Assembly (NCBI GenBank): GCA_016342325.1
Contig: JAEINR010000057.1
Span: 1 to 41,799, forward strand
Direction: 5' to 3'
Length of the DNA: 41,799 nucleotides
Source of the DNA: Desulfobacterium sp.
Lineage (GTDB): Bacteria; Desulfobacterota; Desulfobacteria; Desulfobacterales; Desulfobacteraceae
This document shows positions 4,548 through 37,042 of the stretch, piece after piece. Each line of letters opens with the position of its first letter. The stretch's first letter is position 1. The notes beneath the pieces were generated by a model, which was not told the origin of the DNA, ran no database searches, and saw only the letters and a program-made list of their open reading frames with translations. The position numbers and the translations under genes are program-made.

Positions 4548-5918
4548 TCAAATCAATCCCAGGGAGTGGAGAAAAACGATGGCGATGCCAATGGGAGCCA
4601 GATACTTGGCCGTGAACATGAACGCCCCGATAAAGGGAACCTTGAGCTTGCCTTTACAGGTCAGTTCCTCTTGGACACGATCCCTCTTGAGCATCCATCC
4701 CACAAAAAGCACTGAGATGGCGCCGCCGATGGGCATTTCCACGTTGGACACGGCAAAGTCGGCAAGGTCAAAGAAATTCATCCCAAAAAAGGTGAGTTGC
4801 TCCTGGTACTCGCCCATGGAAAGGGAGCAAACCACTCCCACGACCGAGATAAGCGCTGTGAGAAACAGGGTTGCCCGTTTCCGTGAAATGCCAAGATCCT
4901 CGGACACATAGGCCACGCTCACCTCCAACATGGAGATAGATGAGGTCAGGGCAGCCACGGTGAGCAGCACGAAAAAAAGCAGACAAAAGATATAGCCACC
5001 TGGCATCTGGGCAAAGACATTGGGCAGGGTCACAAAAACAAGGCCCGGCCCCTGGCCCGGCTCTACCCCAAAGGCAAACACGGCCGGAAAGATGGCAATG
5101 CCGGCAAGGAGGGCAATGGCGGTATCGGCGATGCAGATCTGAACGGCGGTGACGCCGAGGTTCTCCCGGGGATTGATATAGGAACCGTAGGTGATCATGG
5201 TTCCTACGCCAAGGCTTAAGGTGAAAAAGGCGTGGCCCAGGGCGTCCAGCACCCCTGCAGCCGAGAGCTTTGAGAAATCGGGTTTAAAGAGAAAGGCAAT
5301 GCCAGCCTCGGCCCCGGGTAGGGTGAGGGAGCGAATGCACAGGAGCACGATGATGCCGAGCAGTATGGGCATCATCACCTTTGAAAACGCTTCAATACCC
5401 TGTTTAACACCTGCATAGACAACCCCTGCAGTGATGGACATGAAGATGAGCTGGCAAACGATGGGCTTCACAGGAGAAACAATGAAACTGCCGAACATTT
5501 CCCCCACCTGGGCAGGACTCTTGTCGGCAAACCCATTGAATGCGGCCTTGACAATGTACTCCAGGGACCAGCCCGCCACAACGCCGTAGAAGCTGAGCAC
5601 CGTGGCGCTGCCGAACAGGGCGATGAACCCGCCAAAGAGCCAGGGACTCCGCTTCCCAGCCAATGCCCTGAAGGAGCCGACAACGCTTCCCCCTCCCCTG
5701 CGACCAATGATAAAATCGGATATCAACACGGGTAAACCAATGAGGGCGATGCAGCAAAGATATACGATGATGAAGGCAGCGCCTCCGTTCTTACCGGTAA
5801 TGTAGGGAAATTTCCAGATATTTCCAAGACCTATGGCAGAACCTGCAGCCACAGCGATGATTGACAGTCGGCCACTGAACAGCGGCCGTTTCTGGTGTTC
5901 CCCTTGGTTTAAATCCAT
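4548..5918 (-). CDS. Neurotransmitter:sodium symporter (SNF/NSS family) transporter
   Basis: A cytoplasmic-membrane sodium-coupled transporter of 456 residues with the LeuT fold. The N-terminus carries the unwound TM1 signature AAGSAIGLGNIWKFPY, followed by GGAAFIIVYLCC and the TM6-like segment AFFTLSLGVGTMITYGSY. About 11-12 hydrophobic segments span the whole length. Family members usually import amino acids; substrate cannot be read here. A HutC-like operator at 6571-6584, oriented toward this gene, lies about 650 bases upstream. Because the BMC cluster has no eutH, this protein is a candidate importer for the amine substrate, but that is inference. The start ATG gives the sequence MDLNQGEHQKRP just before the first membrane segment. 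Confidence 0.92.
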   Translation of the reverse strand: MDLNQGEHQKRPLFSGRLSIIAVAAGSAIGLGNIWKFPYITGKNGGAAFIIVYLCCIALIGLPVLISDFIIGRRGGGSVVGSFRALAGKRSPWLFGGFIALFGSATVLSFYGVVAGWSLEYIVKAAFNGFADKSPAQVGEMFGSFIVSPVKPIVCQLIFMSITAGVVYAGVKQGIEAFSKVMMPILLGIIVLLCIRSLTLPGAEAGIAFLFKPDFSKLSAAGVLDALGHAFFTLSLGVGTMITYGSYINPRENLGVTAVQICIADTAIALLAGIAIFPAVFAFGVEPGQGPGLVFVTLPNVFAQMPGGYIFCLLFFVLLTVAALTSSISMLEVSVAYVSEDLGISRKRATLFLTALISVVGVVCSLSMGEYQEQLTFFGMNFFDLADFAVSNVEMPIGGAISVLFVGWMLKRDRVQEELTCKGKLKVPFIGAFMFTAKYLAPIGIAIVFLHSLGLI

Positions 5919-6606
5919 GCGTGTTTCCTATCTATTTGTTTTCCGGCATCCTTTACTCAACTTACTCCCCAGATTCGCCACCGGGTCGGGATGCCAAAAA
6001 AAAACGACACCGACAAGCAAAACCCGAAGAGGCTTATACTACAGTATCGTTTTTATTTCAACCTGCTGAAATCATATTGCCAAACCGGGGTTTCAAAAAC
6101 AACGGACAAAATAAAACCAAACCCTTTGAAGTCCTTGCAATCACCCTCCATCAGGATCATTCTATCCGGCATCCCCTGCAGGTACAATTGCAACCGCTGT
6201 TCCCATGATCGTCTTTTCAGAAACTGGCATGGGGATCGTCCCGGAGACCCCGTCCCGCCGACAACTATCCCGCCAAATAGGATTATACAAGGACGCCGCA
6301 TCAGCGGCACGCTTGGTACTCATGGCGAAATTGTGAACAATTCAATTAATGAGCGGCAGGAGGGGATGTAATCACATGCTGGAATACAGGACAGAGCCGA
6401 TATCAACTTTCCGAAAAGACTTCTTACTGTTAACTAAAGAATTATTAATGACAAATTTTATGAAAGATAGGAGAAATATACCCTGACGTCCATGGAATCT
6501 CCCTTTTTGCATTACGGACCAAAGAGTGCGTCAAGAACGTTGCCCCCCCCTAAAAGAGGTTCAGCATATATGTCTATACAGACAATAAAGGTAACCACAC
6601 AGCAAT
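5919..6606. other. Long intergenic region upstream of the symporter
   Basis: About 690 bases without a convincing gene. Short open frames exist on both strands but none has family features or a good ribosome-binding site. The only clear signal is the HutC-like operator near its right end (6571-6584). The region may be a long leader of the symporter transcript or the remains of a lost gene. Confidence 0.5.
6571..6584 (-). promoter_or_regulatory. HutC/GntR-type operator, symporter side
   Basis: TGTCTATACAGACA has 5-base inverted arms and contains GTCTATAC, matching the GTnTAnAC pattern typical of HutC-subfamily GntR regulators. Read on the minus strand it is TGTCTGTATAGACA, with the same TGTATAGA core as the other three copies, pointed toward the symporter. 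It lies 23 bases beyond the end of the first gntR gene. Confidence 0.6.
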
Positions 6607-7371
6607 CTATTTCCTGGGGGTGTACTCCCCAAGCTCGAGTTCCAGGACATATTTGTCGCCCCTACAATAGGAGTAGAGAAGTTCCACAGGGGAATTGAGC
6701 CGGTCAAAGGTGATATTCTCCATGAGCAAACCCGCTGATTTTTCGGGAAGATTGAACATAGTGGATATTTTTTTATTAAGATTGACCGCTCTGATCACCT
6801 GGTGGGATTTTACCAGGTCAATCTTGAATTTTTCGGTGATGACCCGGTACAAGGACCCTGAGGCATCTTCAGCAGTAAGATCCTTGAACATATGATAGGG
6901 AAGATAGCTCTCCTCATAGATAAAAGGCGCACCATCACCGGTTCTCAACCGTTTAAGCAGCACCACCCGTCGTTCTGCCCCCAGCAGCAACCGATCTGCG
7001 ACCTCTTTGTCGGCAATCCCGTGCTCCAGCTCAAGAACGATGGTCTTCTCCTCAAGGTTGGCCGAGCCAAAATAGTCTTCAAAGCTGGCTATCTTATTGA
7101 TATCATGGCGAAGTTGAACATCCGGAGAGTCCATCACAAAGGAGCCGACGCCCTTTACCTTTTTAAGAAGCCCTTTGGCAACAAGCTCGGAGATTGCCTG
7201 CCTCAAGGTATTTCTGTTGACACCGCACATCTTTGACAACTCAACCTCGGACGGAAGTTTCTCTCCGGCCTTGAATCGACCGGTATCAATGAGTTCTGTC
7301 AACCACTGGCTTATCTGAAGATATTTCGGAACAGGATTATCAAGATTCACAACATTTACAACATTCATCAC
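6607..7371 (-). CDS. GntR-family transcriptional regulator, HutC subfamily (copy 1)
   Basis: A ligand-responsive repressor of 254 residues. Residues about 10-80 form the winged helix-turn-helix (YLQISQWLTELIDTGRF, LPSEVELSKMCGVNRNTLRQA, KGVGSFV). Residues about 90-250 form a UTRA effector domain (RRVVLLKRLRTGDGAPFIYEESYLP, ending in GDKYVLELELGEY). The start ATG at 7371 follows AAGGGTG by 5 bases. By eye it is closely similar along its whole length to the regulator at 18574-19326. It is divergent from the flavoprotein cluster, with a palindromic operator between them, so it probably represses that cluster. The effector is unknown; an amine or its phosphorylated form would fit the context. Confidence 0.93.
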   Translation of the reverse strand: MMNVVNVVNLDNPVPKYLQISQWLTELIDTGRFKAGEKLPSEVELSKMCGVNRNTLRQAISELVAKGLLKKVKGVGSFVMDSPDVQLRHDINKIASFEDYFGSANLEEKTIVLELEHGIADKEVADRLLLGAERRVVLLKRLRTGDGAPFIYEESYLPYHMFKDLTAEDASGSLYRVITEKFKIDLVKSHQVIRAVNLNKKISTMFNLPEKSAGLLMENITFDRLNSPVELLYSYCRGDKYVLELELGEYTPRK

Positions 7372-8265
7372 AACACCCTTGATTTAAAAGGTTTATAAAC
7401 CCACACCCTTTGATTTATGCGCCTTTAATTGCCGATTAAAACGAAAGAAAACCCATTGGATTCCCTGCCAAAAAGAACTGGTTTAATGACAGCTACACAT
7501 CCATACATCACAACTAAACAGAGATCAACAAAAAGCTCCATAGTATAGGTCCCAAACCATAGGCCACATGTCCACGGTGTCAACCACCTGGATTTACGGG
7601 CAAGAACCTTTAAGGACAAAGCTTTTCTACGTTACCTGGAGATTGGGGTCAGCCCTTTTTTCACCAGACCACTGTTTTTTTTGTTGACAAAAAAGTGATA
7701 CCAAATTACACCTGTATAGAACTCTATACTTTAACACTCGATTGTTTTTGTAATCATTAAACAAGGTGATTGTATGTTTTGGTTCGAAAAAAGACAACTT
7801 GTTATTCCCAATACCATGGAGACGGCTATACAACCGCAACCATGGAAATCTGGAGCAACATCTTCAACTTTGGCAAACCGCCTGTCCATGGGCGCTCACC
7901 AAACAGCCACACCTTACAATACAAAAAAACAAACAATCGTTCCCCCAGGTTTCATTAAAATCCACACCTTTATCAAAGATTCCACCACAATGGAAGGCAA
8001 AAGCGGTTCTTTCCAGACCAGAAGCGATGATAGCGGTGATGATTTTTGCAAATATGAACTTGAACGGCATGCCGAATTCACGACATCCCCAGGTTCAAAA
8101 GACCTTGCCTTGAGGCGTTTTTCGCGTCCGGGGCCTATAACCAAGCTGGAAAATAAGCAGAGGGCAGAGCTGGGCCGATCCAAAGAACACAATTCATAAT
8201 CGGCTGGCACCTTTGTTTAGAACCACTTTCTACAAAGCAACTTTTTTTAAGGAGTACTAGGCACA
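7372..8265. other. Divergent control region and long leader before the flavoprotein cluster
   Basis: About 890 bases. It holds a TTGACA box and palindromic operator (7684-7729), a lone GGGGTCAG half-repeat at 7645, and an open frame at 7774-8199 (141 codons) that has a good AAGGTGAT site 3 bases before its ATG. The product of that frame resembles no family I know and has no obvious domain, so I treat it as a doubtful leader reading frame. The flavoprotein gene has its own AAGGAG 11 bases before its ATG. Confidence 0.5.
7684..7729 (+). promoter_or_regulatory. Promoter -35 box with GntR operator for the flavoprotein cluster
   Basis: TTGACA at 7684-7689 is followed 23 bases later by the palindrome TGTATAGAACTCTATAC (7713-7729). 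Exactly the same 17-mer at exactly the same distance from TTGACA occurs before the NtrC-like gene (19371-19416). No strong -10 match is seen 17 bases downstream, so promoter strength may depend on other factors. A repressor bound at the palindrome would sit at or just below the start point. Confidence 0.65.
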
Positions 8266-10692
8266 ATGAAAGATCAAGCACGAGTAGTTGTCATCGGAGG
8301 CGGTATTGTTGGTTGCTCCATCCTTTATCACCTGGCAAAAGCCGGATGGAAAGATGTTGTAATGGTCGAAAAGGGAGAGGTGACAAGCGGTGCCACCTGC
8401 ATGGCAGCAGGACTCCTTACCCAGTTTAACTCATCCCCCACCATGATGCGGATGAGAAAGTACAGTACCGAGCTCTACGAGGAGCTGGGTGCCTATGAAA
8501 AGGTCGGAAGTGTCCGAATGGCCGCCACCAAAGAGCAGCACATGACCCTCCAGCGGGCCGTCAGTACTGCCAAGGGCGTGGGCCTGGACGTGGACATGAT
8601 CTCCCCCGAAGAAGCAATTAAGCTCATGCCCTGGGCCAGCCCCGAGGACCTCTACAGCGCGGTTTACCTCCCCAACGACGGTCACATCGATCCCCATGGA
8701 ACCACCTATGCCGTTGCAAAGGCTGCTAAGGACCTGGGCGCCGAGATCTACATCAAAACAATGGTCACCGGTATTGAGTTGACGCCTGAGGGCGAGGTCT
8801 GCAAGGTTCTCACCGATCAGGGCGACATCAAAACCAACATCGTGATCAACGCCGCCGGTCTCTGGGGCAAGCAGGTTGCCGCCATGGTCGGCATCAACGT
8901 TCCCTCAACCCCGGTAGTCCACCAGCATCTTGCCCTCCAGGCCGTACCCGGCTCAGAAGTTCCGGACGGCGCCCCCTGCTTCCGTGATACGGACCGACTC
9001 ATCTACGGTCGTCCCGAGCACGGTGGCATCCTGTTCGGCGGCTGGGAAGTCAACCCGCCCTCCATGTGGGAGGACGGCGTACCCTGGAGCCACAGTGCCA
9101 CCGAGGTTCAGTCTGACTTTGACCGCTACGAGCACCTGCTCGTCAACGCCATCAAGCGTTTCCCCTTTCTTGAAGATGCCGGAATTGAGCGCCTTGTCGC
9201 CCATCCCGACGCATTTACCCCGGATTCAAAGCCCCTCATCGGACCTTGGCCCACGGTAAAAGGCTTCTGGCTGGCCTGCGGTCTCTCCATGGAAGGCTTC
9301 GGCGGCGCCGGCGGTATCGGCAAGGCCCTTGCAGAATGGATCATCGACGGCGAAACCGAAGTGGATCTCTTTGGCTACCATGCATGGCGATTCGGCAAGA
9401 ACTTCCTGGATCCCCACTATGCGGCGGCCTGCGGTCGTGAGTGCTACAAGTACTACTACTACACCCGATACCCCAATGACGAAGATACGGAAATGCGTCC
9501 CAGGCGCATCACCCCCTTCAACTACAGACTCCAGGATCTTGGTGCCGTATTTGGCAAGAAGAACGGATGGGAGCGGGTCAACTATGTTGACAAGGGTCAG
9601 CCCTGGCGACGTGCCGGCGAGGACCAGCGGAATTACGGCGGATGGGTCAAGGATCCCAGCTTTGATATCATTGGCGAAGAGAGCAAGGCCTTCCGTGAGA
9701 GAATCGGCATGGTCGACATGACCGCCTTTGGTAAGATCGAGTTCAAGGGTCCCGGCGCCCTGCCCCTTCTCAACCGCATCGCCGTCTCCGAGATGGACAA
9801 ACCCGTTGGTTCCTGCATCTACACCCAGTTCTGTAGCCACACCGGCGGTCTTCTCGCCGACGTGACCATCACCCGACTGGGTGAGGACTACTACAGACTT
9901 GTTACCGGTTCCGGATTCATCGACAATGACCTTGGCCACATCAAGAGCCAGGTTCGCAAGGATGACCTGGAAGTTGAGATCAGGGACGTCACCGACGAGT
10001 ACTCCGTCATCGGCTTCTGGGGTCCGGATGCAAGAAATGCCCTTGAGAAGATCACCCAGGACGACGTATCCAACCAGGGCCTTCCCTACATGACCGCCAA
10101 GTTCATCACCATCAACGGTGTTGAAACACTTGCCCAGCGGGTCTCCTATGCAGGCGAGCTCGGATGGGAGTTCTACACCAAGGTAGACAAATCCATCATC
10201 GTATGGGATAACCTATGGAGTGCTGGCCAGGAGTTTGACATTGCCGCCTGCGGTTACAAGTCCCTGAACTCCCTGCGACTGGAAAAGGGTTACCTCTACT
10301 ACAGCGACGACATCACCACCCTGGAGAATCCCTACCAAGCAGGCATCGGTTTCACCGTGAGCAAGACAAAAGAGTTCCTCGGAAGCGATGCCCTTGCCAA
10401 GGTCAAGGAAGCAGGCATCAGCCAGAAGCTTTGCACCATCACCATCGGTGGCGAAGAGTGGCTGCCCCTCTACGGCGGCGAGGCTGTTGTTGTGGACGGC
10501 AAAGTAGTCAGCCGCCTCAGGGGAACAGGATATGGTTACACAGTGAAGAAGAACATCGGGAATGTCTACCTTCCCCTGGAACTTGCCAAGAAAGGTACAG
10601 CCATTAACGTTGAGATATTCGGAGAGATGGTTCCGGCGGTTGTTGCAGCCAGGGTTCTCTGCGATCCCAAGGGAGAAAAACTGAAAAAATAA
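8266..10692 (+). CDS. Dimethylglycine/sarcosine dehydrogenase-like flavoprotein with GcvT-type domain
   Basis: An 808-residue FAD enzyme. Residues 1 to about 390 form a D-amino-acid-oxidase-type flavin domain (VVVIGGGIVGCSILYHL, GGGIVG at 11-16; GMSMEGFGGAGGIGKALAEW near 340). Residues about 430-800 form an aminomethyltransferase (GcvT-like) domain with VSYAGELGWEFY, the family's folate-domain signature. Known relatives oxidatively remove N-methyl groups, hand the one-carbon unit to tetrahydrofolate and pass electrons to ETF, which fits the nearby etfBA. At the site where dimethylglycine and sarcosine dehydrogenases attach FAD covalently through His (motif WHAAGL) this protein has CMAAGL, with Met46, so the flavin should be non-covalent. 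The substrate is not determined; a mono- or dimethylated ethanolamine is my inference. Confidence 0.9.
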   Translation: MKDQARVVVIGGGIVGCSILYHLAKAGWKDVVMVEKGEVTSGATCMAAGLLTQFNSSPTMMRMRKYSTELYEELGAYEKVGSVRMAATKEQHMTLQRAVSTAKGVGLDVDMISPEEAIKLMPWASPEDLYSAVYLPNDGHIDPHGTTYAVAKAAKDLGAEIYIKTMVTGIELTPEGEVCKVLTDQGDIKTNIVINAAGLWGKQVAAMVGINVPSTPVVHQHLALQAVPGSEVPDGAPCFRDTDRLIYGRPEHGGILFGGWEVNPPSMWEDGVPWSHSATEVQSDFDRYEHLLVNAIKRFPFLEDAGIERLVAHPDAFTPDSKPLIGPWPTVKGFWLACGLSMEGFGGAGGIGKALAEWIIDGETEVDLFGYHAWRFGKNFLDPHYAAACGRECYKYYYYTRYPNDEDTEMRPRRITPFNYRLQDLGAVFGKKNGWERVNYVDKGQPWRRAGEDQRNYGGWVKDPSFDIIGEESKAFRERIGMVDMTAFGKIEFKGPGALPLLNRIAVSEMDKPVGSCIYTQFCSHTGGLLADVTITRLGEDYYRLVTGSGFIDNDLGHIKSQVRKDDLEVEIRDVTDEYSVIGFWGPDARNALEKITQDDVSNQGLPYMTAKFITINGVETLAQRVSYAGELGWEFYTKVDKSIIVWDNLWSAGQEFDIAACGYKSLNSLRLEKGYLYYSDDITTLENPYQAGIGFTVSKTKEFLGSDALAKVKEAGISQKLCTITIGGEEWLPLYGGEAVVVDGKVVSRLRGTGYGYTVKKNIGNVYLPLELAKKGTAINVEIFGEMVPAVVAARVLCDPKGEKLKK

Positions 10693-28728: not shown

Positions 28729-28753
28729 AAAAACAACTCACAGGAGAAACAAT

Positions 28754-29032
28754 ATGTCATCAAGCGCATTGGGAATGATCGAGACAAAGGGACTGGTTGG
28801 AGCCATTGAGGCAGCGGACGCAATGGTTAAGGCGGCCAACGTCAAGCTCATTGGAAAGCAGCAGATCGGTGCAGGCCTTGTCACCGTCATGGTCAGGGGT
28901 GATGTGGGCGCTGTCAAGGCAGCCACGGATGCAGGCGCTGCCGCAGCCGACAGGGTCGGGGAGCTTGTCAGCGTCCATGTTATTCCAAGACCCCATTCAG
29001 ACGTGGAATCCATCCTGACAACAAAGGGATAA
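28754..29032 (+). CDS. eutM: Hexameric BMC shell protein EutM/PduA-type (copy 1)
   Basis: A 92-residue major facet protein. A CAGGAGAAAC site precedes the ATG. It has the canonical single BMC domain: [73 protein letters not shown]. By eye it differs from the second copy (33133-33411) at about ten residues, mostly at the ends, while the DNA differs at many synonymous positions. It follows a 190-base gap after eutE that holds repeats, so it may have separate expression control. Confidence 0.97.
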
Positions 29033-29038
29033 CCGACC

Positions 29039-29839: not shown

Positions 29840-29851
29840 CGGAGTGCTTTC

Positions 29852-30523
29852 ATGGACAAAACCATAATAGAGAAAATTGTTGCCCTGGTGATGGCGGAGC
29901 TTGCAGCCAAGCCCACCGCTATTCCGGTGGAGCTCTCTGCCCGGCATGTCCACCTGGCCCAGGCTGATATAGATGCGCTCTTTGGCGGGCAGTTGACCCC
30001 GGCCAAGGATCTCTCCCAGCCGGGTCAGTTTTTGAGCAAGGAACGGGTCAGGCTCATCGGTCCCAGGGGGGTGATCGACAATGTTGCTGTTCTTGGACCT
30101 GCCCGGCCCGAGTCCCAGGTGGAGATTTCCCTTACCGATGCCAGGATTCTGGGCATCGATACCCCCATCCGCCAGTCCGGAGAGATCAAGGACACCCCGG
30201 GCATTGTCCTTTCATCCCACAAGGGCATCGTGGGACTGGACCAGGGGGTCATTGTGGCTGGCCGCCATATCCACATGCCTGCAAAGGATGCAGCAGGATT
30301 CAACGTCAAGGACGGGGACCTGATCAAGGTGCGCATGAACAGTTCAAGACCCGTTGTCATGGAGGATGTCCTGGTCCGGGTCAACGACCAGTTCAACCTT
30401 GCCATGCACATCGATTTTGACGAGGGCAATGCCTGCGGATGGAAGCAGGGAGTGCCCGGCACCATCGTAGCAAAAGAGCCCAGCACCATTGCAACAAACC
30501 AGGAGAAAGTCGTTGAACTTTGA
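29852..30523 (+). CDS. pduL: PduL-type phosphate acyltransferase
   Basis: Interconverts acetyl-CoA and acetyl-phosphate, recycling CoA within the compartment. It is 223 residues. Residues 1-20 form an amphipathic helix (MDKTIIEKIVALVMAELAAK), a likely encapsulation peptide. Zinc-ligand motifs ELSARHVHLAQADIDALFG and GRHIHMPAKDA are in place. It takes the position and role of eutD (Pta-type), which is absent. Its last 11 bases overlap the start of eutJ. Confidence 0.96.
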   Translation: MDKTIIEKIVALVMAELAAKPTAIPVELSARHVHLAQADIDALFGGQLTPAKDLSQPGQFLSKERVRLIGPRGVIDNVAVLGPARPESQVEISLTDARILGIDTPIRQSGEIKDTPGIVLSSHKGIVGLDQGVIVAGRHIHMPAKDAAGFNVKDGDLIKVRMNSSRPVVMEDVLVRVNDQFNLAMHIDFDEGNACGWKQGVPGTIVAKEPSTIATNQEKVVEL

Positions 30524-31352
30524 ACAGATAGACCAGCAGATCGCAGCCCTTGAGGCCTGCATAGACACAACGGTCAAGGTAGGGGCTGATGAGCCGCTCC
30601 TCGTGGGCGTGGACCTTGGAACCGCCTACATTGTCGTTGTGGTGTTAAACAGTGAGAAAAAACCGGTGGCCTGTGCCATGGAGTTTGCCCAGGTGATCAA
30701 GGACGGCCTGGTGGTGGACTACATCGGCGCCAGCAGGATCGTCAGGAAACTTGTGGGACAGCTGGAAGAACGGCTGGGCAGGACCCTTGAAACCGCAGCC
30801 ATTGCGGTTCCACCGGGAACCGGGGAGCGGGACGCCAAGACCCACACCTATGTGGTGGAGGGGGCGGGCCTCACCGTCACTTCAATCCTTGACGAGCCCA
30901 CGGCCGCCAATGCCGTACTCGGCATCGAGGACGGGGTTGTCGTGGACATCGGCGGCGGCACCACCGGGCTTTCGGTGATTGAAAAGGGCAAGGTGGTATA
31001 CACGGCTGATGAAGCCACCGGCGGTACCCACCTGACCCTGGTCATGTCCGGGAACCATCGGGTGGATTTTGAAGAAGCCGAAAAAATGAAAAAAGATCCG
31101 GCCCGCCAGGGGGAGACCCTGCTGGTGGTCACCCCGGTGATCCAGAAGATGGCCTCCATTGTCCGGAACCACATCCAGGGCAGGAAGGTCAATGGGGTTT
31201 ACCTTGTGGGCGGCACCTGCTGCCTTAAGAACTTTGAGCGGGTGTTTGAGAATGCCCTCGGCTCTAAGGTATTTAAACCAGCCAACCCATTTCTCGTGAC
31301 CCCCCTTGGCATCGCCCTTAACTGCGGCACCCAGGAGACACCATGGAGTTAG
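30513..31352 (+). CDS. eutJ: EutJ, Hsp70/actin-fold ethanolamine utilisation protein
   Basis: A 279-residue ASKHA-fold protein of the eut locus, proposed to act as a chaperone. The start is set at a TTG at 30513 with AGGAGA 6 bases before it, overlapping pduL by 11 bases; a TTG at 30489 is an alternative. Phosphate-1 is LVGVDLGTAYIVVVVL, the connect region is AIAVPPGTGERDAKTH, phosphate-2 is VVDIGGGTTGLSVIE, and the adenosine motif is YLVGGTCCLKNFERVF. Residues 1-20 are helical and could be a targeting tail. The precise role of EutJ is not established. Confidence 0.92.
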   Translation: MNFEQIDQQIAALEACIDTTVKVGADEPLLVGVDLGTAYIVVVVLNSEKKPVACAMEFAQVIKDGLVVDYIGASRIVRKLVGQLEERLGRTLETAAIAVPPGTGERDAKTHTYVVEGAGLTVTSILDEPTAANAVLGIEDGVVVDIGGGTTGLSVIEKGKVVYTADEATGGTHLTLVMSGNHRVDFEEAEKMKKDPARQGETLLVVTPVIQKMASIVRNHIQGRKVNGVYLVGGTCCLKNFERVFENALGSKVFKPANPFLVTPLGIALNCGTQETPWS

Positions 31353-31957
31353 AAGACCTGATTCGGAAACTGACCCGGGAGATCATCCAGGAGCTGAACA
31401 CTGAAACCGGAACCGGGACCAAAGCAGAAGTACAACGGGAGACCGTCCTGATCTTTGGAAAAAAGGACGACACCTACACCGAGCCCCTTCTCTCCCTCAT
31501 TAACGGCAATGCCCGCATCTTGTATCTGGATGGGGACTGGCGGGACAAGGCCATAGACCGTTATGTCCTTCCGTTGCTCACCCTGGGCCAGATGGGAGAA
31601 CTCTCCCAGGGAATGGCACGGGGGCGGATCGGCGGTGAAGTACTGACCACGGTTCTTTCCGGCAACACCGTTGAAGTGGTCCAGTACGGTTACACCTATT
31701 ATCAGGACACTGCTCCTGAAGCGCTGTTAAGGCTATATGAAACCCAAAAGGAAACCCTGGAGGGATTCGGGATCAAAGCGTTTGAGCCCATGGGCCAAGA
31801 GCTGCTTCGATGCAGAAAACGACTGGTAACTGAAACCGAGGTTCAAAAGGCCAGGGACAAGGGGGCAGCAACCCTCCAGGTTCCAACGGACGCCGTGATA
31901 ACCCCCCTAGCAGCCGAGTTTGCCAGGGACAATTCAATTGAAATCCTGAAACGATAG
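31343..31957 (+). CDS. Ethanolamine-locus-associated protein of unknown function (TIGR02536-like)
   Basis: A 204-residue protein whose layout fits the eut-associated family otherwise described mainly in Gram-positive eut loci; I assign it by memory of that family, not by search. Residues 1-20 form a targeting-type helix (MELEDLIRKLTREIIQELN). The centre has an alternating beta/alpha pattern (VLIFGKKDD, ARILYLDGDW). The C-terminus (VPTDAVITPLAAEFARDNSIEIL) carries the TPxAxEF motif also seen in EutT and the small protein at 32797. It overlaps eutJ by 10 bases. No catalytic residues are recognised. Confidence 0.7.
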   Translation: MELEDLIRKLTREIIQELNTETGTGTKAEVQRETVLIFGKKDDTYTEPLLSLINGNARILYLDGDWRDKAIDRYVLPLLTLGQMGELSQGMARGRIGGEVLTTVLSGNTVEVVQYGYTYYQDTAPEALLRLYETQKETLEGFGIKAFEPMGQELLRCRKRLVTETEVQKARDKGAATLQVPTDAVITPLAAEFARDNSIEILKR

Positions 31958-31967
31958 GGGTGGTTCA

Positions 31968-32243
31968 ATGATTATTTGCAAGGTATTAGGAAGTGTGTGG
32001 GCGACCCGCAAGGAGGAGTCCCTCAACGGCATTAAACTGATGATCGTACAACGAATGGACGTGTCCAACAACACCAAGACCGAGACGTTTGTGGCCGCCG
32101 ACTTTGTCGGGGCCGGTATCGGAGACCGGGTTCTTGTGGCAACGGGCAGCTCGGCCAGGAACGCCTGCGGTCAGGCGGATGCCCCCATCGATGCAACCAT
32201 CGTCGGCATTATTGATGAACTTGAAACAGGGGCAGACGATTAA
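31968..32243 (+). CDS. eutN: Pentameric vertex protein EutN/CcmL-type (BMC-P)
   Basis: A 91-residue vertex-capping protein. It shows the BMC-P pattern: MIICKVLGSVWATRKEESLNGIKLMIVQ at the N-terminus, FVAADFVGAGIGDRVLVATGSSAR in the middle, and PIDATIVGIIDELE at the end. AGGGGTGG precedes the ATG. It ends directly against the next gene (stop codon 32241-32243). Confidence 0.96.
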   Translation: MIICKVLGSVWATRKEESLNGIKLMIVQRMDVSNNTKTETFVAADFVGAGIGDRVLVATGSSARNACGQADAPIDATIVGIIDELETGADD

Positions 32244-32792
32244 ATGAGCACTCTGGGTCTTGTAGAAACAAAAAGCATTGCCGCAGGCGTCCTGGTGGCG
32301 GATCTCATGATGAAGCGGGCATCCGTGGAACTTGTCAAGGCAACCACCATCTGCTCCGGACGGTATCTGATCCAGATTTCAGGAGAGCGGGAAGAGGTAA
32401 AGACCTCGGTGGAGGCGGCAAGGGAAGCCGGTGTCATCCTGGTCGCCACCTTTGTGCTCTCTAACATAAGCCCGGAAGTGCTGACGGCTCTGAAACGATC
32501 TCCCCTGGTGGGCAGAAACAATGCGCTTTCGGTTGTGGAGTGCAAAACAGCCTCGGCCGGCATTGCCGCAGCCGATGCAGCCGTAAAGGAATCCGGGGCC
32601 ACGTTGGCAAAACTGGTCACGGGCCAGGGAATCATGGGAAAATCCTACTTTGTCCTGGCAGGTGAGCTTACCTCGGTCCAGGCCGGCACCCGGGCCGCAG
32701 AGCACAACCTTGAAAAAAACCTCATCAACACCGTTGTAATCCCCTCCCCCGACTTTTCGGTAATGAACGCTCTTATAAAGGTTGAAAGGTAA
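32244..32792 (+). CDS. PduT-like tandem-BMC shell protein (copy 1), possible [4Fe-4S] pore
   Basis: A 182-residue BMC-T protein starting right at the eutN stop. The first BMC domain (STLGLVETKSIAAGVLVADLMMKRASVELV) carries Cys37 in TTICSGRYLIQISG, aligned with the Cys that holds an Fe-S cluster in the pore of PduT trimers. The second domain is ALSVVECKTASAGIAAADAAVKES, ending VVIPSPDFSVMNAL. A second PduT-like gene occurs at 36491. Fe-S binding is inferred from the Cys and its setting. Confidence 0.9.
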   Translation: MSTLGLVETKSIAAGVLVADLMMKRASVELVKATTICSGRYLIQISGEREEVKTSVEAAREAGVILVATFVLSNISPEVLTALKRSPLVGRNNALSVVECKTASAGIAAADAAVKESGATLAKLVTGQGIMGKSYFVLAGELTSVQAGTRAAEHNLEKNLINTVVIPSPDFSVMNALIKVER

Positions 32793-32796
32793 AACT

Positions 32797-33114
32797 ATGG
32801 GTAAAACACTGATTAGATGCAACTGTATCGAACAGCACATCTGCCAGGAAAACAATACCATCTATATGAACAACGCCATGATCCTGACCTCTGAAGCCAA
32901 GGATTATCTCAGGAACAAGGGAATCGCCATCGTTTACGGGGAGAAACCGGCGGCACCGGCAGTACCGGCAACTGCCCCGGCTCCGAACCAGGAGGAGATG
33001 GAATTAATCATGGAAAAGGTGATCACCATCCTCAGGGACGAGCACCAGATAACAGACACAAAAACACTGAAAGCTCTCGGTTTAAAAATTTTAACCAGAC
33101 TAAATTCAAACTAA
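32797..33114 (+). CDS. Small microcompartment-associated protein with CNC motif and helical tail
   Basis: A 105-residue protein of no family I can name. The ATG at 32797 follows GAAAGG by 7 bases. Residues 1-20 contain three Cys (IRCNCIEQHICQE). Residues about 30-48 have the MILTSEAKDYLRNKGIAIVYG stretch that resembles the ITPSA motif of EutT and EutQ N-termini. A Pro/Ala-rich linker follows, and the last 40 residues form an amphipathic helix (EEMELIMEKVITILRDEH) resembling an encapsulation peptide. It lies between a PduT-like and a EutM gene, so it is probably a cargo or adaptor protein. Function unknown. Confidence 0.75.
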   Translation: MGKTLIRCNCIEQHICQENNTIYMNNAMILTSEAKDYLRNKGIAIVYGEKPAAPAVPATAPAPNQEEMELIMEKVITILRDEHQITDTKTLKALGLKILTRLNSN

Positions 33115-33132
33115 AACAAGGAGTAAGGTATT

Positions 33133-33411
33133 ATGAATGCATTGGGAATGATCGAAACAAAGGGACTTGTCGGAGCCATTGAAGCTGCAGATGCCATGGT
33201 AAAAGCCGCAAATGTAAAGCTCATCGGTCGTGAGCAGGTAGGAAGCGGTCTTGTAACGGTAATGGTTCGTGGAGATGTCGGCGCTGTCAAGGCTGCAACC
33301 GATGCAGGCGCTGCTGCTGCCGATCGTGTGGGCGAGCTTGTCAGCATCCACGTCATCCCAAGACCCCACAGCGACGTCGAAGCCATCCTCCCCTCCTGCA
33401 CAGCAGAGTAG
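33133..33411 (+). CDS. eutM: Hexameric BMC shell protein EutM/PduA-type (copy 2)
   Basis: A 92-residue major shell protein, nearly identical in protein to copy 1 at 28754 over [29 protein letters not shown] and [25 protein letters not shown]. The ends differ (MNALG at the N-terminus, PSCTAE at the C-terminus). AAGGAG precedes the ATG by 9 bases. Many synonymous codon differences between the copies show the duplication is not recent or that it arrived separately. Confidence 0.97.
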
Positions 33412-33438
33412 CGGCGGCTGCCTTAAAGAGCGACAGAC

Positions 33439-33472
33439 GGGGTCAGGGTTTTCTTAAGAAAAGCCTGACCCC
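33439..33472. repeat. GGGGTCAGG hairpin between eutM copy 2 and the eutQ-like gene
   Basis: GGGGTCAGG (33439-33447) pairs with CCTGACCCC (33464-33472); one G/G mismatch then TTTTCTT/AAGAAAA extends the stem to the centre, leaving no loop beyond the TTAA tip. It lies inside the operon and is followed by ATGGATTGTCATT, not by a T-tract. Confidence 0.7.
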
Positions 33473-33526
33473 ATGGATTGTCATTGACACACGTAAACGG
33501 TTTGTTGTAAAAAGCGAGGTTTAAAA

Positions 33527-33979
33527 ATGGAAATTGATGAAAAAATACTCGAGAATCTCATCCGCAAGGTTATTTCAGAACAGCTGGGAAACTTCCGGCC
33601 AGACGAAACCAAAACCATTGACAAGAAAAGCGGTGTGATCACCATTAAGGCACCTGCCGTAACAACCGAACGGTTTGATACGGGCAAAGCCGGAGACCAG
33701 GTTTTTATCAAGGATGCAGTCACCCTTGAAGAGAGCCCGCGAATGATGTTTGGCATCATGGAGATGAAAGAGAGCTCAGCCTTTGACTGGACCCTTGGGT
33801 ATGACGAGGTGGACTACATCATCGAAGGCACCCTGGAGATCACGGTTGACGGTGTTAAAAGCACTGCCGGCCCAGGTGAAATCATCTTTATCCCCATGAA
33901 CACCTCCGTAACCTTCAGCACCCCGGATTCAACACGGTTCATGTACGTGACCTATCCGGCAAACTGGAGTGAGCAATAG
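33527..33979 (+). CDS. eutQ: EutQ-like cupin protein
   Basis: A 150-residue protein with a C-terminal cupin (TLGYDEVDYIIEGTLEITVDGVKSTAGPGEIIFIPMNTSVTFSTPDSTRFMYVTYPANW). Residues 1-20 form an encapsulation-type helix (MEIDEKILENLIRKVISEQL). It is shorter than enterobacterial EutQ because the N-terminal ITPEA domain is absent; that motif appears instead in separate proteins of this operon. EutQ of Salmonella has been reported to have acetate-kinase activity; that cannot be assumed here. Confidence 0.9.
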   Translation: MEIDEKILENLIRKVISEQLGNFRPDETKTIDKKSGVITIKAPAVTTERFDTGKAGDQVFIKDAVTLEESPRMMFGIMEMKESSAFDWTLGYDEVDYIIEGTLEITVDGVKSTAGPGEIIFIPMNTSVTFSTPDSTRFMYVTYPANWSEQ

Positions 33980-34011
33980 ATTTAATATAAAAAGACTCAA
34001 AGGAAGTACCA

Positions 34012-35118
34012 TTGACACAGTTTAACGGAAAAACGAAAATTTGTTACGATGAAAACGCCATGGAGGTCCTTGAGACCCTGCCGGCAAAGCATGCCCTCTT
34101 GGTCACCGATCCCTTCATGGTCAAGACCGGCTTTTCAAAAAGAATCGTCAGCCACCTTGAACGGGCAAACATCGCCTATACCATATTTGGCAACGTGGAA
34201 CCGGATCCGTCGTTAAACACCGTTAAACAGGGCATCCTGGCAATGGATGACGCCACGGACCTGATCATCACCCTGGGCGGCGGCTCTGCCATTGATACGG
34301 CAAAAGCCATCCTCTATTTCACCCACAAGGCCGCCCCTGGAGCCAAAAAGCCGATCCTGGTGGCCATTCCCACCACCGCCGGTACAGGCTCCGAGGTGAC
34401 AGCGTTCTCGGTTGTGTCAGATACGGAAAAAGGGATCAAGCTTCCCCTGGTGGACGAGCTCATGATTCCGGACATTGCGATTCTCGATGCCCGGTTCACA
34501 AGGACGGTACCGGCCTCGGTAACGGCGGCAACGGGCATGGACGTTCTTACCCACGCCATTGAAGCCTACACCGCCCGTAAGGCCAATGCGTTTACCGACC
34601 TTTACGCAGAACAGGCCATCAAATACGTGTTCAAGTACCTGGCCCGGTCCTACAGCTGCGGCGATGACATGGTCGCAAGGGAGAAGATGCTGCTTGCATC
34701 CTGCATGGCCGGCATGGCGTTCAACAACGCAGGCCTGGGCATCGGCCACAGCATCGCCCACGCCCTGGGCGGAGCCTTCCACATCCCCCATGGAAAGGCA
34801 AACGCCCTGGTGCTTCCCCATGCGATCCGGTTCAACACCTTTGACGCAGGTGACAAATACCGCTCCATTGCCGCCCTTCTGGGACTTCCCTCCGCCACCA
34901 TTGACGAGGGCGTCTCAAGCCTGATCCACGGCATTGACTGGCTCAACAAGCAGATGGAGATTCCCACCCGGGTCAAGGACCTTGGCGTAGACCCGGCCGA
35001 ATTTTCGGCAGCCGTTCCCACCATGGCAGCCCATGCCCTGGAAGACCCCTGCACCGAAGGCACCCCAAGGCAACCCAGCATCAGCGATCTGAAGACCATT
35101 CTGGAGCAGCTCTACTAA
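34012..35118 (+). CDS. pduQ: Iron-type alcohol dehydrogenase, PduQ/EutG-like
   Basis: Reduces acetaldehyde to ethanol and regenerates NAD+ inside the compartment. It is 368 residues. The likely start is TTG at 34012 with AGGAAG 5 bases before it. The NAD site is LGGGSAIDTAKAIL, and the iron ligands lie in GMDVLTHAIEAY, GLGIGHSIAHALGGAFHIPHGKANALVLPH. By eye it is closer to PduQ than to EutG in length and in the FTDLYAEQAIKYVF region. It is followed by pduS and pduT, the same order as in pdu operons. Confidence 0.95.
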   Translation: MTQFNGKTKICYDENAMEVLETLPAKHALLVTDPFMVKTGFSKRIVSHLERANIAYTIFGNVEPDPSLNTVKQGILAMDDATDLIITLGGGSAIDTAKAILYFTHKAAPGAKKPILVAIPTTAGTGSEVTAFSVVSDTEKGIKLPLVDELMIPDIAILDARFTRTVPASVTAATGMDVLTHAIEAYTARKANAFTDLYAEQAIKYVFKYLARSYSCGDDMVAREKMLLASCMAGMAFNNAGLGIGHSIAHALGGAFHIPHGKANALVLPHAIRFNTFDAGDKYRSIAALLGLPSATIDEGVSSLIHGIDWLNKQMEIPTRVKDLGVDPAEFSAAVPTMAAHALEDPCTEGTPRQPSISDLKTILEQLY

Positions 35119-35146
35119 GAACGGATTCACAGGATAAGAGATTGGA

Positions 35147-36478
35147 ATGAAAGAAACCATCATAGAAAAAGTAAAACAGGCAGGGATTGTCGGAGCCGGC
35201 GGCGCTGGTTTCCCAACCCATGTCAAGGTAAATGCCACGGTCGATACCGTGCTCGTAAACGGTGCCTCCTGTGAACCCCTCCTCATGAGCGACCCCTATC
35301 TCCTGGAGCAGGAGATCGACACGGTGATCAAAGGGCTAAAAACGGTCCTGGACGCCACCGGCGCCACCGAAGGCATCATCTGCCTCAAGGGAAAACACGC
35401 CAAAGCCATGGCATCCGTGGCCCGTGCCGTTGAAGCTGAAACCGATCCCCGGATCAAAATGTTCGAGCTTCAGGACTTCTACCCTGCCGGGGACGAGCAT
35501 GTGCTGGTCAACGAGGTGATGGGACGCACGGTCCCGGAAGCCGGACTGCCCCTGAACGTGGGCGCCGTGGTCTCCAATGTGGAATCCCTCTACAACATCG
35601 CCCTTGCCATGGCGGACAAACCCGTCACCCACCGCTATCTCACCGTCACCGGTGAGATCCGCAACCCCATGGTGGTGAAGGTTCCTGTTGGCGCGCTGGT
35701 TTCAGAGGTGCTGGACTTTGCAGGCGGTTCCCTGATCGAAAACTTCAGGGTGGTGGACGGCGGCCCCATGATGGGCCGGGTGCTCGACACCACGGACCAG
35801 CCGGTCACCAAGACCACAAGCGGCCTTATCGTGCTCCCCGAGACCCACAACGTGGTTGCAGGCAAGATTTTGGATCCAAAAACAATCCGGCGGATCACCA
35901 CCACGGTCTGCTGCCAGTGCAGCCAGTGCACGGATCTTTGCCCCAGGAACCTTTTGGGACACGATCTCCACCCCCATAAGCTCATGCGCCTCTATGCCAC
36001 GGACATGGTTCCGGCAGACGCGCGCAAAGAAGCACTGCTCTGCTCCGAATGCGGCATCTGCGAGAAGTTCGCCTGCCCCATGGGCATCAGCCCCAGGGAG
36101 GTGAACGCCCAGATCAAACGGGAACTTGCAGCCGAGGGAATCAGATGGCAGGCATCGGGCAAGATCCCGGAAAACAATCCGTTCCTGACCACCCGCCACA
36201 TTCCCACAAAACGGTTGATGCAGCGCCTGGATGTTACCCAATACGACACCCATCCGACCTTCTGCCAGACAGAGTTCCTGCCAAGCCATGTGAAACTTCT
36301 GTTGGGCCAGCACATCGGCGCACCCGCAATGCCGGTTGTGGCCGTGGGTGATTGTGTGACCGCTGGAAACCTTGTGGCCGAAATCCCGGAAAACGCCCTG
36401 GGCGCCAGGATCCATGCCAGCATCACCGGCGTGGTCACAGGGGTCACCAAGGACGCTGTTACAATAAAACATCAGTAA
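35147..36478 (+). CDS. pduS: PduS-type Fe-S flavoprotein (RnfC-like cobalamin reductase)
   Basis: A 443-residue RnfC-fold protein that in pdu systems reduces cob(III)/cob(II)alamin and may pass electrons across the shell. It opens with IVGAGGAGFPTHVKVN (flavin/NADH-binding region). Two [4Fe-4S] motifs are complete: C255-x2-C258-x2-C261-x3-C265 (CQCSQCTDLC) and C299-x2-C302-x2-C305-x4-C310 (CSECGICEKFAC). The C-terminal barrel-sandwich region (LGQHIGAPAMPVVAVGDCV, HASITGVVTGV) follows. It lies between pduQ and a pduT-like gene, its usual neighbour and interaction partner. Confidence 0.95.
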   Translation: MKETIIEKVKQAGIVGAGGAGFPTHVKVNATVDTVLVNGASCEPLLMSDPYLLEQEIDTVIKGLKTVLDATGATEGIICLKGKHAKAMASVARAVEAETDPRIKMFELQDFYPAGDEHVLVNEVMGRTVPEAGLPLNVGAVVSNVESLYNIALAMADKPVTHRYLTVTGEIRNPMVVKVPVGALVSEVLDFAGGSLIENFRVVDGGPMMGRVLDTTDQPVTKTTSGLIVLPETHNVVAGKILDPKTIRRITTTVCCQCSQCTDLCPRNLLGHDLHPHKLMRLYATDMVPADARKEALLCSECGICEKFACPMGISPREVNAQIKRELAAEGIRWQASGKIPENNPFLTTRHIPTKRLMQRLDVTQYDTHPTFCQTEFLPSHVKLLLGQHIGAPAMPVVAVGDCVTAGNLVAEIPENALGARIHASITGVVTGVTKDAVTIKHQ

Positions 36479-36490
36479 TCGAGGTTGATA

Positions 36491-37042
36491 ATGAACTTAA
36501 GAACAATCGGCTCTGTGGAGCTTAACAGCATAGCCGTCGGCATCCATGTGGCCGACGAGATGGTCAAGTGCGCCAGTGTTGATCTCCTGATCGCCCGACC
36601 CACCTGTCCGGGACGATATCTCATCATCGTTTCCGGCGACACAGGCTCGGTCAAGACAGCCGTGGAAACAGGACGGGACATTGGTAAAGACATGGTCATC
36701 GACTGGTTCACCATTCCCAGCGTCCATCCGTCCGTCATCCCGGCCCTGAGCGGCACCTCCCTCATCCCTGAGATCACGGCCCTGGGTGTCATCGAGACCT
36801 TCACAACGGTTGCCTGCATCCTTGCCGCCGATGCCGCCGCCAAGTCAGGCGCTGTGGATATCATCGAGATCCGTTCGGCATCCGGCCTTGGAGGCAAAGC
36901 CTTTGTCACCATGACCGGCGACGTGGGATCGGTGGAAGCATCTGTTGCAGCCGGCATTGAAGGCGTGGGCGATTCAGGACCCGTGGCAAGCCACGTGGTA
37001 ATCCCCTCCCCCAGCCAGGAACTGAAACAGAAGCTGTTGTAG
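36491..37042 (+). CDS. pduT: PduT-like tandem-BMC shell protein (copy 2), probable [4Fe-4S] pore
   Basis: A 183-residue BMC-T shell protein. The ATG at 36491 follows GAGG by 6 bases, 12 bases after pduS. The first domain (IGSVELNSIAVGIHVADEMVKCASVDLLI) has Cys39 in RPTCPGRYLIIVSG, matching the cluster-binding Cys of PduT. The second domain is ALGVIETFTTVACILAADAAAKSGAV and the C-terminus HVVIPSPSQELKQKLL. The pairing with pduS suggests an electron route through the shell. It is the last intact gene of the BMC locus. Confidence 0.95.
   Translation: MNLRTIGSVELNSIAVGIHVADEMVKCASVDLLIARPTCPGRYLIIVSGDTGSVKTAVETGRDIGKDMVIDWFTIPSVHPSVIPALSGTSLIPEITALGVIETFTTVACILAADAAAKSGAVDIIEIRSASGLGGKAFVTMTGDVGSVEASVAAGIEGVGDSGPVASHVVIPSPSQELKQKLL

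What the first reader, a model, noticed from the sequence alone, without database searches (positions are those of the whole stretch)
4548..37042. A single GntR-type regulon may join amine demethylation, ETF electron transfer and an ethanolamine microcompartment
The same operator core (TGTATAGA) precedes four transcription units, each time in the sense direction: symporter, dimethylglycine-dehydrogenase-like/APH kinase/MttB-like/HAD cluster, etfBA-Fe-S oxidoreductase, and the NtrC-like/eut BMC operon. Two near-duplicate HutC-type regulators flank them. Known biochemistry of the families: MttB relatives take methyl groups off quaternary amines, DMGDH-like enzymes oxidise N-methyl groups with THF and ETF, and EutBC needs free ethanolamine. 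Inference: choline or N-methylated ethanolamines are first stripped of methyl groups, then the ethanolamine is broken down in the BMC. This differs from the known anaerobic choline route through CutC, which releases trimethylamine.
Basis: partly seen in the sequence, partly recalled or inferred. Interest (0 to 1): 0.85.

Follow-up and report, generated by a model that had tools for sequence, protein, structure and literature searches.

The report
Choline-stripping regulon feeding an ethanolamine microcompartment
In a sulfate-reducing type of bacterium, one pair of near-identical repressors seems to control a set of genes that would free choline, remove its methyl groups and break down the leftover ethanolamine inside a protein compartment, a route that would release no trimethylamine; the sequence makes this likely but nobody has tested it.

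Summary
TGTATAGA occurs four times in the window (0.2 expected), each upstream of, and reading towards, a named unit. The regulon is larger: the exact 18-bp palindrome occurs four times in this genome and at four orthologous places in the sister Desulfobacterium, and not in the third genome of the genus, which lacks a close regulator homologue. The two sites outside the window precede an alkaline phosphatase and a choline/ethanolamine kinase-family gene. All eight palindromes have TTGACA 22-23 bp upstream, as expected of repressor sites. The APH kinase + MttB-like pair resembles the choline pathway shown in Eubacterium limosum in 2025 (kinase MthK; MthB acts on phosphocholine). The window's eut operon lacks the EutH permease and sensor kinase that the genome's second eut operon has, so its ethanolamine is probably made inside the cell. 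Best reading: choline -> phosphocholine -> stepwise N-demethylation (MttB-like, then DMGDH-like with ETF) -> phosphoethanolamine -> ethanolamine -> EutBC compartment. The substrate is inferred. Weak points: no corrinoid protein in the window, an aberrant short MttB, a DMGDH without its FAD-binding His, an amino-acid-type symporter. In nine other genomes the demethylation loci have no eut beside them, so the coupling looks lineage-specific.

The parts
4548..5918 (-). SNF/NSS family Na+ symporter; closest solved relative 4us3 (MhsT, an amino-acid transporter; that name is recalled)
   Evidence: Pfam PF00209; 4us3_A E 9.4e-107
6567..6582 (-). operator A (TCTGTATAGACATATA), HutC-type GTMTAKAC, 3' of gntR1 and upstream of the symporter
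6607..7371 (-). GntR1, HutC-type regulator (GntR + UTRA)
   Evidence: PF00392 + PF07702; 78% identical to GntR2
7712..7729 (+). operator B, exact palindrome CTGTATAGAACTCTATAC; TTGACA 22 bp upstream
8266..10692 (+). dimethylglycine-dehydrogenase-like flavoprotein (DAO + GcvT domains); Met in place of the His that binds FAD covalently (position recalled)
   Evidence: PF01266, PF01571; 4pab E 2e-136 with alignment; motif comparison
10773..11960 (+). APH-family kinase, proposed choline kinase (MthK-like role)
   Evidence: PF01636; HCDFHPGN motif with H, D, N invariant in 8 sequences; kinase fold
12069..13352 (+). short MttB-superfamily protein, proposed phosphocholine N-demethylase (MthB-like role)
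   Evidence: PF06253 77.7 bits; 9yce and 2qne E about 2e-17; orthologues in 10 other genomes
13464..14084 (+). HAD hydrolase, proposed phosphoethanolamine phosphatase
   Evidence: PF13419; of the 11 MttB loci examined, found only in the two with eut beside them
14475..16571 (-). membrane Fe-S oxidoreductase, proposed to pass ETF electrons to the membrane
   Evidence: PF02754, PF13183; near MttB orthologues in L051 and L054/L055
16660..17607 (-). EtfA
   Evidence: PF00766, PF01012
17710..18477 (-). EtfB
   Evidence: PF01012
18517..18532 (-). operator C (TCTGTATAGACATGTA) upstream of etfB; TTGACA 24 bp upstream
18574..19326 (-). GntR2, HutC-type regulator
   Evidence: PF00392 + PF07702
19399..19416 (+). 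operator D, exact palindrome; TTGACA 22 bp upstream; precedes ntrC-eut
19479..20924 (+). NtrC-like sigma-54 activator; receiver looks degenerate (by eye); reduced to remnants in the sister genome
   Evidence: PF00158; remnant
20939..37042 (+). eut operon: BMC-shell gene, EutP, EutB, EutC, EutA, further BMC proteins, aldehyde dehydrogenase, EutT, PTAC, EutJ-like ATPase, EutQ, Fe-ADH, Complex1_51K/RnfC-type protein, BMC-T (labels EutS/K/L/M/N/J, PduS recalled); no match to EutH or to the sensor kinase of the second operon
   Evidence: Pfam; EutT model matched below its cut-off; EutB vs 2qez E 2e-182; tblastn

Best explanation
A choline-catabolic regulon. Two nearly identical HutC-type GntR repressors sit on operators just downstream of the -10 region of at least five promoters (possibly six). 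When an inducer is present (inferred: choline, phosphocholine, phosphoethanolamine or ethanolamine) they let go and six units are expressed: an alkaline phosphatase (start looks like a signal peptide) that frees choline/ethanolamine from phosphate esters; a choline/ethanolamine kinase; an Na+ symporter; the DMGDH-like / APH-kinase / MttB-like / HAD operon; EtfBA with a membrane Fe-S oxidoreductase; and a dedicated eut compartment. Proposed flow: choline is phosphorylated (APH and/or the choline kinase); the MttB-like protein moves one methyl from phosphocholine to a corrinoid protein encoded elsewhere in the genome and on to tetrahydrofolate; the DMGDH-like flavoprotein oxidises the remaining two N-methyl groups to methylene-THF, with electrons going to ETF and the membrane; the HAD phosphatase (or reversal of the kinase) frees ethanolamine; EutBC and the compartment turn it into ammonia and acetyl-CoA. 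Shown by sequence: families, operators, their position, conservation in the sister species, the extra regulon members, absence of EutH from this operon. Inferred: repression, substrate, order of steps, phosphorylated intermediates, inducer.
For: Operators: 4 exact 18-bp palindromes in G000 and 4 in G059, at orthologous genes; none exact in G058, which also has no regulator match at E <= 1e-15 and no MttB orthologue. A pattern covering all window sites: 6 hits in 6.67 Mb, 0 in the reversed control. TTGACA 22-23 bp before all eight palindromes and 24 bp before the etfB site in both genomes. Extra members: alkaline phosphatase PF00245 and Choline_kinase PF01633, 88% and 92% identical in G059 behind the same site. 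Precedent: E. limosum choline kinase MthK and the phosphocholine-specific MttB-superfamily protein MthB are adjacent and abundant in choline-grown but not lactate-grown cells (PMC12155760). The kinase lies in the same locus as the MttB orthologue in 8 of 11 genomes. G059 has an EamA transporter between kinase and mttB, as E. limosum has next to mthB. The genome's second eut operon has EutH and a PdtaS-type kinase; neither gives a match in the window or in the corresponding G059 loci (tblastn). Of the 11 MttB loci the HAD gene occurs only in the two with eut. In G059 the NtrC-like gene is reduced to remnants, which puts eut directly behind the operator.
Against: No corrinoid protein or pterin-binding methyltransferase in the window; the genome's PF02607 proteins lie on other contigs. 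The MttB-like protein is short (427 aa) and scores 77.7 bits against the MTTB profile (72.9 in the genome scan), while five others of the genome score 325-492 and a seventh scores 48. The DMGDH-like protein has Met in place of the FAD-binding His. The symporter is closest to an amino-acid carrier, and its operator is the weakest. The kinase fold matches N-acetylhexosamine kinase better than choline kinases. The regulon's choline-kinase-family protein has the guanitoxin-pathway kinase GntI as best NCBIfam match, 151 bits against a cut-off of 357. Orthology to E. limosum MthB/MthK could not be tested. Nothing measured shows induction or turnover. Relatives' clusters also hold transaldolase, alanine dehydrogenases and a HisC-like aminotransferase, which this pathway does not explain. 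The union with eut is seen in two close relatives only.
Confidence: 0.6

Rival explanations
1. Betaine-type catabolism plus shared ethanolamine control: the flavoprotein and MttB-like protein break down glycine betaine, dimethylglycine or sarcosine (brought in by the amino-acid-type symporter), and eut is regulated together with it only because both substrates come from the same lipid or osmolyte debris.
For: Symporter closest to an amino-acid carrier. Of 15 loci with 33-37% relatives of the short MttB protein, 5 have the same FeS or ETF genes next to it and 2 a neighbour that looks like a canonical MttB by eye. The closest solved enzymes are dimethylglycine dehydrogenase and glycine betaine methyltransferase.
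Against: A kinase in the same locus as the MttB orthologue in 8 of 11 genomes, and a choline-kinase-family gene and an alkaline phosphatase in the same regulon, are not expected for betaine. The genome has separate canonical MttB + corrinoid sets, one of them with a BCCT transporter confirmed by Pfam. EutH is missing from this eut operon.
Confidence: 0.17
2. General scavenging of phospholipid head groups, with phosphoethanolamine/ethanolamine as the main substrate: phosphatase and kinase handle phosphoethanolamine, eut breaks down ethanolamine, and the demethylation genes serve only minor methylated variants.
For: Alkaline phosphatase and kinase under the same operator. Named relatives of the regulators include PhnF/PhnR, matched below cut-off; their ligand type (aminoethylphosphonate; recalled) resembles phosphoethanolamine.
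Against: Ethanolamine from outside would need uptake, and the second eut operon with EutH already serves that. The demethylation and ETF genes are a large part of the regulon.
Confidence: 0.15
3. The sites are real but belong to autoregulation of two duplicated gntR genes; eut is in fact run by the NtrC-like activator and another signal.
For: Each gntR gene is bracketed by sites, as in a duplicated block. An NtrC-like gene lies between operator D and eut.
Against: The same sites stand on two other contigs, conserved at the same genes in a second species, and no regulator match at E <= 1e-15 lies on those contigs. The NtrC-like gene is reduced to remnants in the sister while operator D stays, and its receiver lacks the usual phosphorylated Asp (read by eye).
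Confidence: 0.06

Closest known systems
MthK/MthB/MthC/MthA choline demethylation of Eubacterium limosum (PMC12155760; abstract, Results parts 1-2 of 3, co-localisation section, Discussion and search passages read)
   Same: kinase of the phosphotransferase family beside an MttB-superfamily protein; kinase size fits (about 48 kDa by my arithmetic from the paper's kcat and Vmax; window protein 395 aa); EamA transporter beside mttB in the sister genome; the paper reports co-localised homologues in delta-proteobacteria
   Different: E. limosum stops at dimethylaminoethanol after one demethylation; here a DMGDH-like enzyme, ETF and a eut compartment follow; no MthC/MthA counterpart in the window; the MttB-like protein is short
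Ethanolamine-utilisation (EUT) microcompartments
   Same: EutBC, EutA, EutT, aldehyde dehydrogenase, PTAC, Fe-ADH, EutQ, EutP and shell proteins present
   Different: no EutH permease and no sensor kinase; HutC-type GntR sites; a second eut operon with both sits elsewhere in the genome
Mitochondrial dimethylglycine dehydrogenase / Arthrobacter dimethylglycine oxidase (species of 1pj5 recalled)
   Same: same two-domain build over the full length; the Asp that is changed to Ala in the 3gsi chain is present
   Different: covalent-FAD His replaced by Met in both Desulfobacterium proteins, kept as His in the 60% identical orthologue of G579
CutC choline trimethylamine-lyase pathway (recalled)
   Same: anaerobic choline use with acetaldehyde handled in a microcompartment (recalled)
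   Different: no glycyl-radical lyase among the window genes searched; not checked genome-wide
HutC-subfamily GntR regulators (PMC4494728; passages seen)
   Same: GntR + UTRA domains; operators A and C fit GTMTAKAC; GTATATAC lies upstream of the gntR orthologue in 3 of 3 related clusters that hold one
   Different: the other four sites of each genome use a longer GTATAGA-AC-TCTATAC palindrome

Membership tests
MthKBCA choline demethylation system | phosphotransferase-family kinase gene close to an mttB-superfamily gene | tested here: met
   window 10773-11960 / 12069-13352; same locus in 8 of 11 genomes
MthKBCA choline demethylation system | kinase catalytic (Brenner) motif | tested here: met
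   HCDFHPGN with H252, D254, N259 invariant in 8 sequences; motif definition recalled
MthKBCA choline demethylation system | cognate corrinoid protein in the cluster | tested here: not met
   8 PF02607 matches in the genome, none on the window contig C191; tblastn with a corrinoid protein of the genome: no window match
MthKBCA choline demethylation system | methylcorrinoid:THF methyltransferase in the cluster | tested here: not met
   pterin-binding protein of L086 gives no window match; such genes lie elsewhere (L086 by Pfam; L117 80% identical)
MthKBCA choline demethylation system | MttB-superfamily protein orthologous to MthB | not testable with these tools
   no E. limosum sequence at hand; plasmid searches gave no match
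MthKBCA choline demethylation system | canonical MttB length and profile score | tested here: inconclusive
   above Pfam's cut-off (77.7 vs 25 bits) but far below five canonical members of the genome
MthKBCA choline demethylation system | activity on phosphocholine | not testable with these tools
   needs enzyme assay
Dimethylglycine dehydrogenase family | DAO flavin domain fused to GcvT folate domain | tested here: met
Dimethylglycine dehydrogenase family | His that binds FAD covalently (position recalled) | tested here: not met
   SGATCMAAG against TWHAAG / STSHAPG in solved chains
EUT microcompartment | EutBC lyase plus BMC shell proteins and aldehyde dehydrogenase | tested here: met
EUT microcompartment | EutH permease and sensor kinase in the operon (common, not universal; recalled) | tested here: not met
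   no window match with those of the second operon, where they are present
HutC-type GntR regulator | GntR HTH plus UTRA domain | tested here: met
   both proteins
HutC-type GntR regulator | operator GTMTAKAC | tested here: met
   2 exact sites, at A and C; B and D deviate
CutC choline lyase pathway | glycyl-radical choline lyase CutC with CutD | tested here: not met
   none among the window proteins searched with Pfam; not tested for the whole genome

The most novel reading that the evidence does not exclude
A sulfate reducer carries a complete anaerobic choline oxidation route without trimethylamine: choline is kept as a phosphate ester while three N-methyl groups go to folate, the last two by a new kind of flavoprotein demethylase acting on N-methylated ethanolamine (phosphates) and feeding ETF. 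The ethanolamine made inside the cell enters its own permease-less eut microcompartment, all under one HutC-type regulon built by joining a Desulfobacterales demethylation module to a second eut operon.
Probability: 0.45. Interest if true: 0.85.

Novelty: new variant of a known kind. Interest (0 to 1): 0.74.

Why it matters
In coastal sediment, choline is reported to feed methane formation through trimethylamine (PMC6331629; abstract start and passages seen). A bacterium that demethylates choline all the way and oxidises the rest would divert that flow. The E. limosum pathway shown in 2025 removes one methyl group only; this locus predicts what removes the other two and what happens to the ethanolamine. 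It also predicts a eut compartment whose substrate is made inside the cell, and gives six defined operator sites and a few candidate enzymes with which to test the idea directly.

Tried and rejected
Structure of the MttB-like protein: the model was poor (mean pLDDT 61.8) and was not searched. Fold search of the kinase: many kinases, N-acetylhexosamine kinase first, choline kinases from rank 10 of the 50 listed; no substrate call possible. Rfam for a leader RNA in the long symporter leader: at gathering thresholds only the tmRNA was found. Plasmid collection for relatives of kinase and MttB: no match. Phylum-wide sample: 1 of 395 genomes (the window's own) had the MttB orthologue at E <= 1e-90; the order sample gave 11 of 389 including own and sister. 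Looser operator search (up to 3 mismatches over three genomes): beyond the 8 exact sites, 4 hits (2 in G000, 1 in G059, 1 in G058) against 7 in the reversed control; these were dropped. The 33-37% MttB relatives (15 loci) and the weaker ones were set aside as different groups after looking at their neighbours. Literature: the listings of searches (empty) showed no paper that joins stepwise choline demethylation to a eut compartment; only the open-licence library was searched, listings were capped, and most listed papers were not opened. Opened: PMC12155760 (sections), PMC12478193 (abstract and outline), PMC13044021, PMC9842639, PMC6331629, PMC4494728 (passages).


Full report
WHAT WAS CHECKED. 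TGTATAGA occurs four times in the window against 0.20 expected; no shuffle of 100 reached four. The four copies lie upstream of the symporter, the DMGDH-like gene, etfB and the NtrC-like/eut operon, and each reads towards its gene. The copies are of two types. B (7712-7729) and D (19399-19416) are an exact palindrome, GTATAGA-AC-TCTATAC. A and C are TCTGTATAGACAT and fit the HutC-subfamily consensus GTMTAKAC exactly, although that short consensus by itself is not significant in the window (2 found, 0.49 expected; consensus seen in a passage of PMC4494728). Each gntR gene has an A/C-type site behind its stop and a B/D-type site before its start; the two blocks align, which suggests a duplication. 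The regulators are identical at 198 of 254 aligned positions and share the stretch VNRNTLRQAI, also present in the orthologues of three other genomes.

THE ORGANISM. The window is contig C191 of a 6.67-Mb genome. Its genus holds three genomes in this set. So the window is taken to be from Desulfobacterium; that this genus reduces sulfate is recalled. G058, the third, is rated 100% complete. It has no MttB orthologue at E <= 1e-20, no regulator match at E <= 1e-15 and no exact palindrome, only one place with three mismatches.

THE REGULON IS LARGER THAN THE WINDOW. A pattern covering all four window sites has six hits in the whole genome and none in the reversed control. The two new ones are exact copies of the palindrome. 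Over the genus, the exact 18-mer occurs four times in G000, four times in G059, never in G058; hits with mismatches number 4 against 7 in the reversed control. The type A/C pattern, one mismatch allowed, has two hits in G000, two in G059, none in G058 and none in the control. The new sites lie before an alkaline phosphatase (PF00245; its start looks like a signal peptide, read by eye) followed by a YibE/F gene, and before a Choline_kinase-family protein (PF01633). Both have orthologues in G059 (88% and 92% identical) behind the same site. In all eight palindromic sites TTGACA stands 22-23 bp before the operator; before the etfB site it is 24 bp in both genomes; the symporter site has none in either. 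A repressor there would cover the start of transcription; that step is inference.

THE ENZYMES. The flavoprotein matches dimethylglycine dehydrogenase over its whole length (E 2e-136). The Asp that is Ala in the 3gsi chain is present, but the His that binds FAD covalently (position recalled) is Met in both Desulfobacterium proteins, while the 60% identical protein of G579 keeps His. The MttB-like protein scores 77.7 bits against PF06253; of the six other MttB matches in this genome five score 325-492 and one 48. Its best solved relatives are 9yce, named glycine betaine methyltransferase, and 2qne (E about 2e-17). The kinase has the HxDxxxxN motif, invariant at H, D and N in eight sequences. 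Its model is good (pLDDT 85), but the fold search lists sugar, antibiotic and choline kinases and does not decide the substrate.

THE PRECEDENT. In Eubacterium limosum, MthB (MttB superfamily), MthC (corrinoid), MthA and MthK are abundant in choline-grown and not in lactate-grown cells. MthK is a phosphotransferase-family choline kinase; MthB acts on phosphocholine and not on choline; the culture product is dimethylaminoethanol; an EamA transporter gene lies between mthB and mthA/mthC; co-localised homologues are reported in delta-proteobacteria (PMC12155760; abstract, Results parts 1-2 of 3, co-localisation section, Discussion, passages). From its kcat and Vmax MthK is about 48 kDa and MthB about 53 kDa (my arithmetic); the window kinase has 395 residues and the MttB-like protein 427. 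In G059 an EamA transporter (PF00892) sits between kinase and mttB. Orthology could not be tested, because no E. limosum sequence was at hand.

THE MODULE ELSEWHERE. Orthologues of the MttB-like protein (65-70% identical) were found in nine further genomes out of 389 searched in the order, besides own and sister. Of these nine, the kinase lies in the same locus in six, a DMGDH-like gene (in one a fragment) in six, FeS and/or ETF genes in three, the gntR orthologue in three. Several contigs end early, so these are lower bounds. None of these nine loci has a match to the eut genes or the HAD gene at E <= 1e-5; one of the nine genomes (71-97% complete) has an eutB match at E <= 1e-30, 40% identical. 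GTATATAC lies upstream of the gntR orthologue in each of the three loci that hold one, and one of them has a second copy upstream of a transaldolase gene; the other seven stretches scanned have one match to the consensus in all, inside the DMGDH-like gene of L053. The fullest cluster (G579) also holds a canonical MttB, a second DMGDH-like gene, a gene that starts like the transketolase-like gene of L034 (by eye), two alanine-dehydrogenase-like genes (one searched), a HisC-like aminotransferase and, nearby, an APH-M23-aminotransferase fusion. Such fusions resemble kinase plus phospholyase for phosphoethanolamine or phosphohydroxylysine (recalled). That would be another way to dispose of phosphoethanolamine, but transaldolase and the dehydrogenases remain unexplained.

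THE EUT SIDE. The genome has a second eut operon on C181 whose EutB is 59% identical. It carries EutH (PF04346) and a PdtaS-type sensor kinase. Neither gives a tblastn match in the window or in the corresponding loci of G059 (E <= 1e-3). The window operon starts instead behind operator D and an NtrC-like gene. That gene's receiver lacks the usual phosphorylated Asp (read by eye), and in G059 it is reduced to remnants while operator D stays. So the window's compartment looks like a paralogue retuned for ethanolamine made inside the cell under GntR control. This is inference from gene content.

CONCLUSION. The route is best drawn with phosphorylated intermediates. The main doubts are the corrinoid partner, the short MttB, the missing FAD-binding His and the symporter type. 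The union with eut is seen in two closely related genomes only, so it is supported by one lineage, not by repeated evolution.

Noticed in passing
79-1709: Tyrosine integrase gene (79-1278, +) next to a tmRNA gene (1352-1709, -): a typical integration site; the rest of any element would lie beyond the contig end.
   Followed up: no
38844-41760: MarR regulator, then TmcC/HmcE-like, HmcF/TmcB-like, cytochrome c7 and a methylene-THF reductase C-terminal (PF12225) gene at the contig end: electron-transfer genes that could serve one-carbon oxidation (NCBIfam matches below cut-off).
   Followed up: partly
7774-8199: ORF of 141 aa between operator B and the DMGDH-like gene; 57% identical in the sister genome while the genes on either side are 93-95%: doubtful gene or fast-changing leader.
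   Followed up: no
L075 4481-19735: Second eut operon of the same genome with EutH and a PdtaS-type histidine kinase.
   Followed up: partly
L013-L016, L019: Relatives (33-35%) of the short MttB protein sit beside the same FeS or ETF genes in other genomes; no kinase match within the roughly 4-kb loci: perhaps a shared accessory role in methylated-amine clusters.
   Followed up: partly
L054 1233-4316: APH-peptidase M23-class III aminotransferase fusion near the demethylation cluster of G579, a possible kinase-phospholyase.
   Followed up: partly
L086 5560-10106; L117 7562-10717: Canonical MttB genes of the window genome in sets with a corrinoid protein (PF02607) and a pterin-binding protein (Pfam in L086; 80% identical in L117), in L086 also a BCCT transporter: probable betaine systems and candidate corrinoid donors.
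   Followed up: partly
L032 12311-13675: The sister genome has a second SNF symporter (89% identical to the window's) between the HAD and FeS genes.
   Followed up: no
L056 (G000:C168:19512-20975): The best-scoring MttB match of the genome is listed with one TAA inside the matched stretch; left as found.
   Followed up: no
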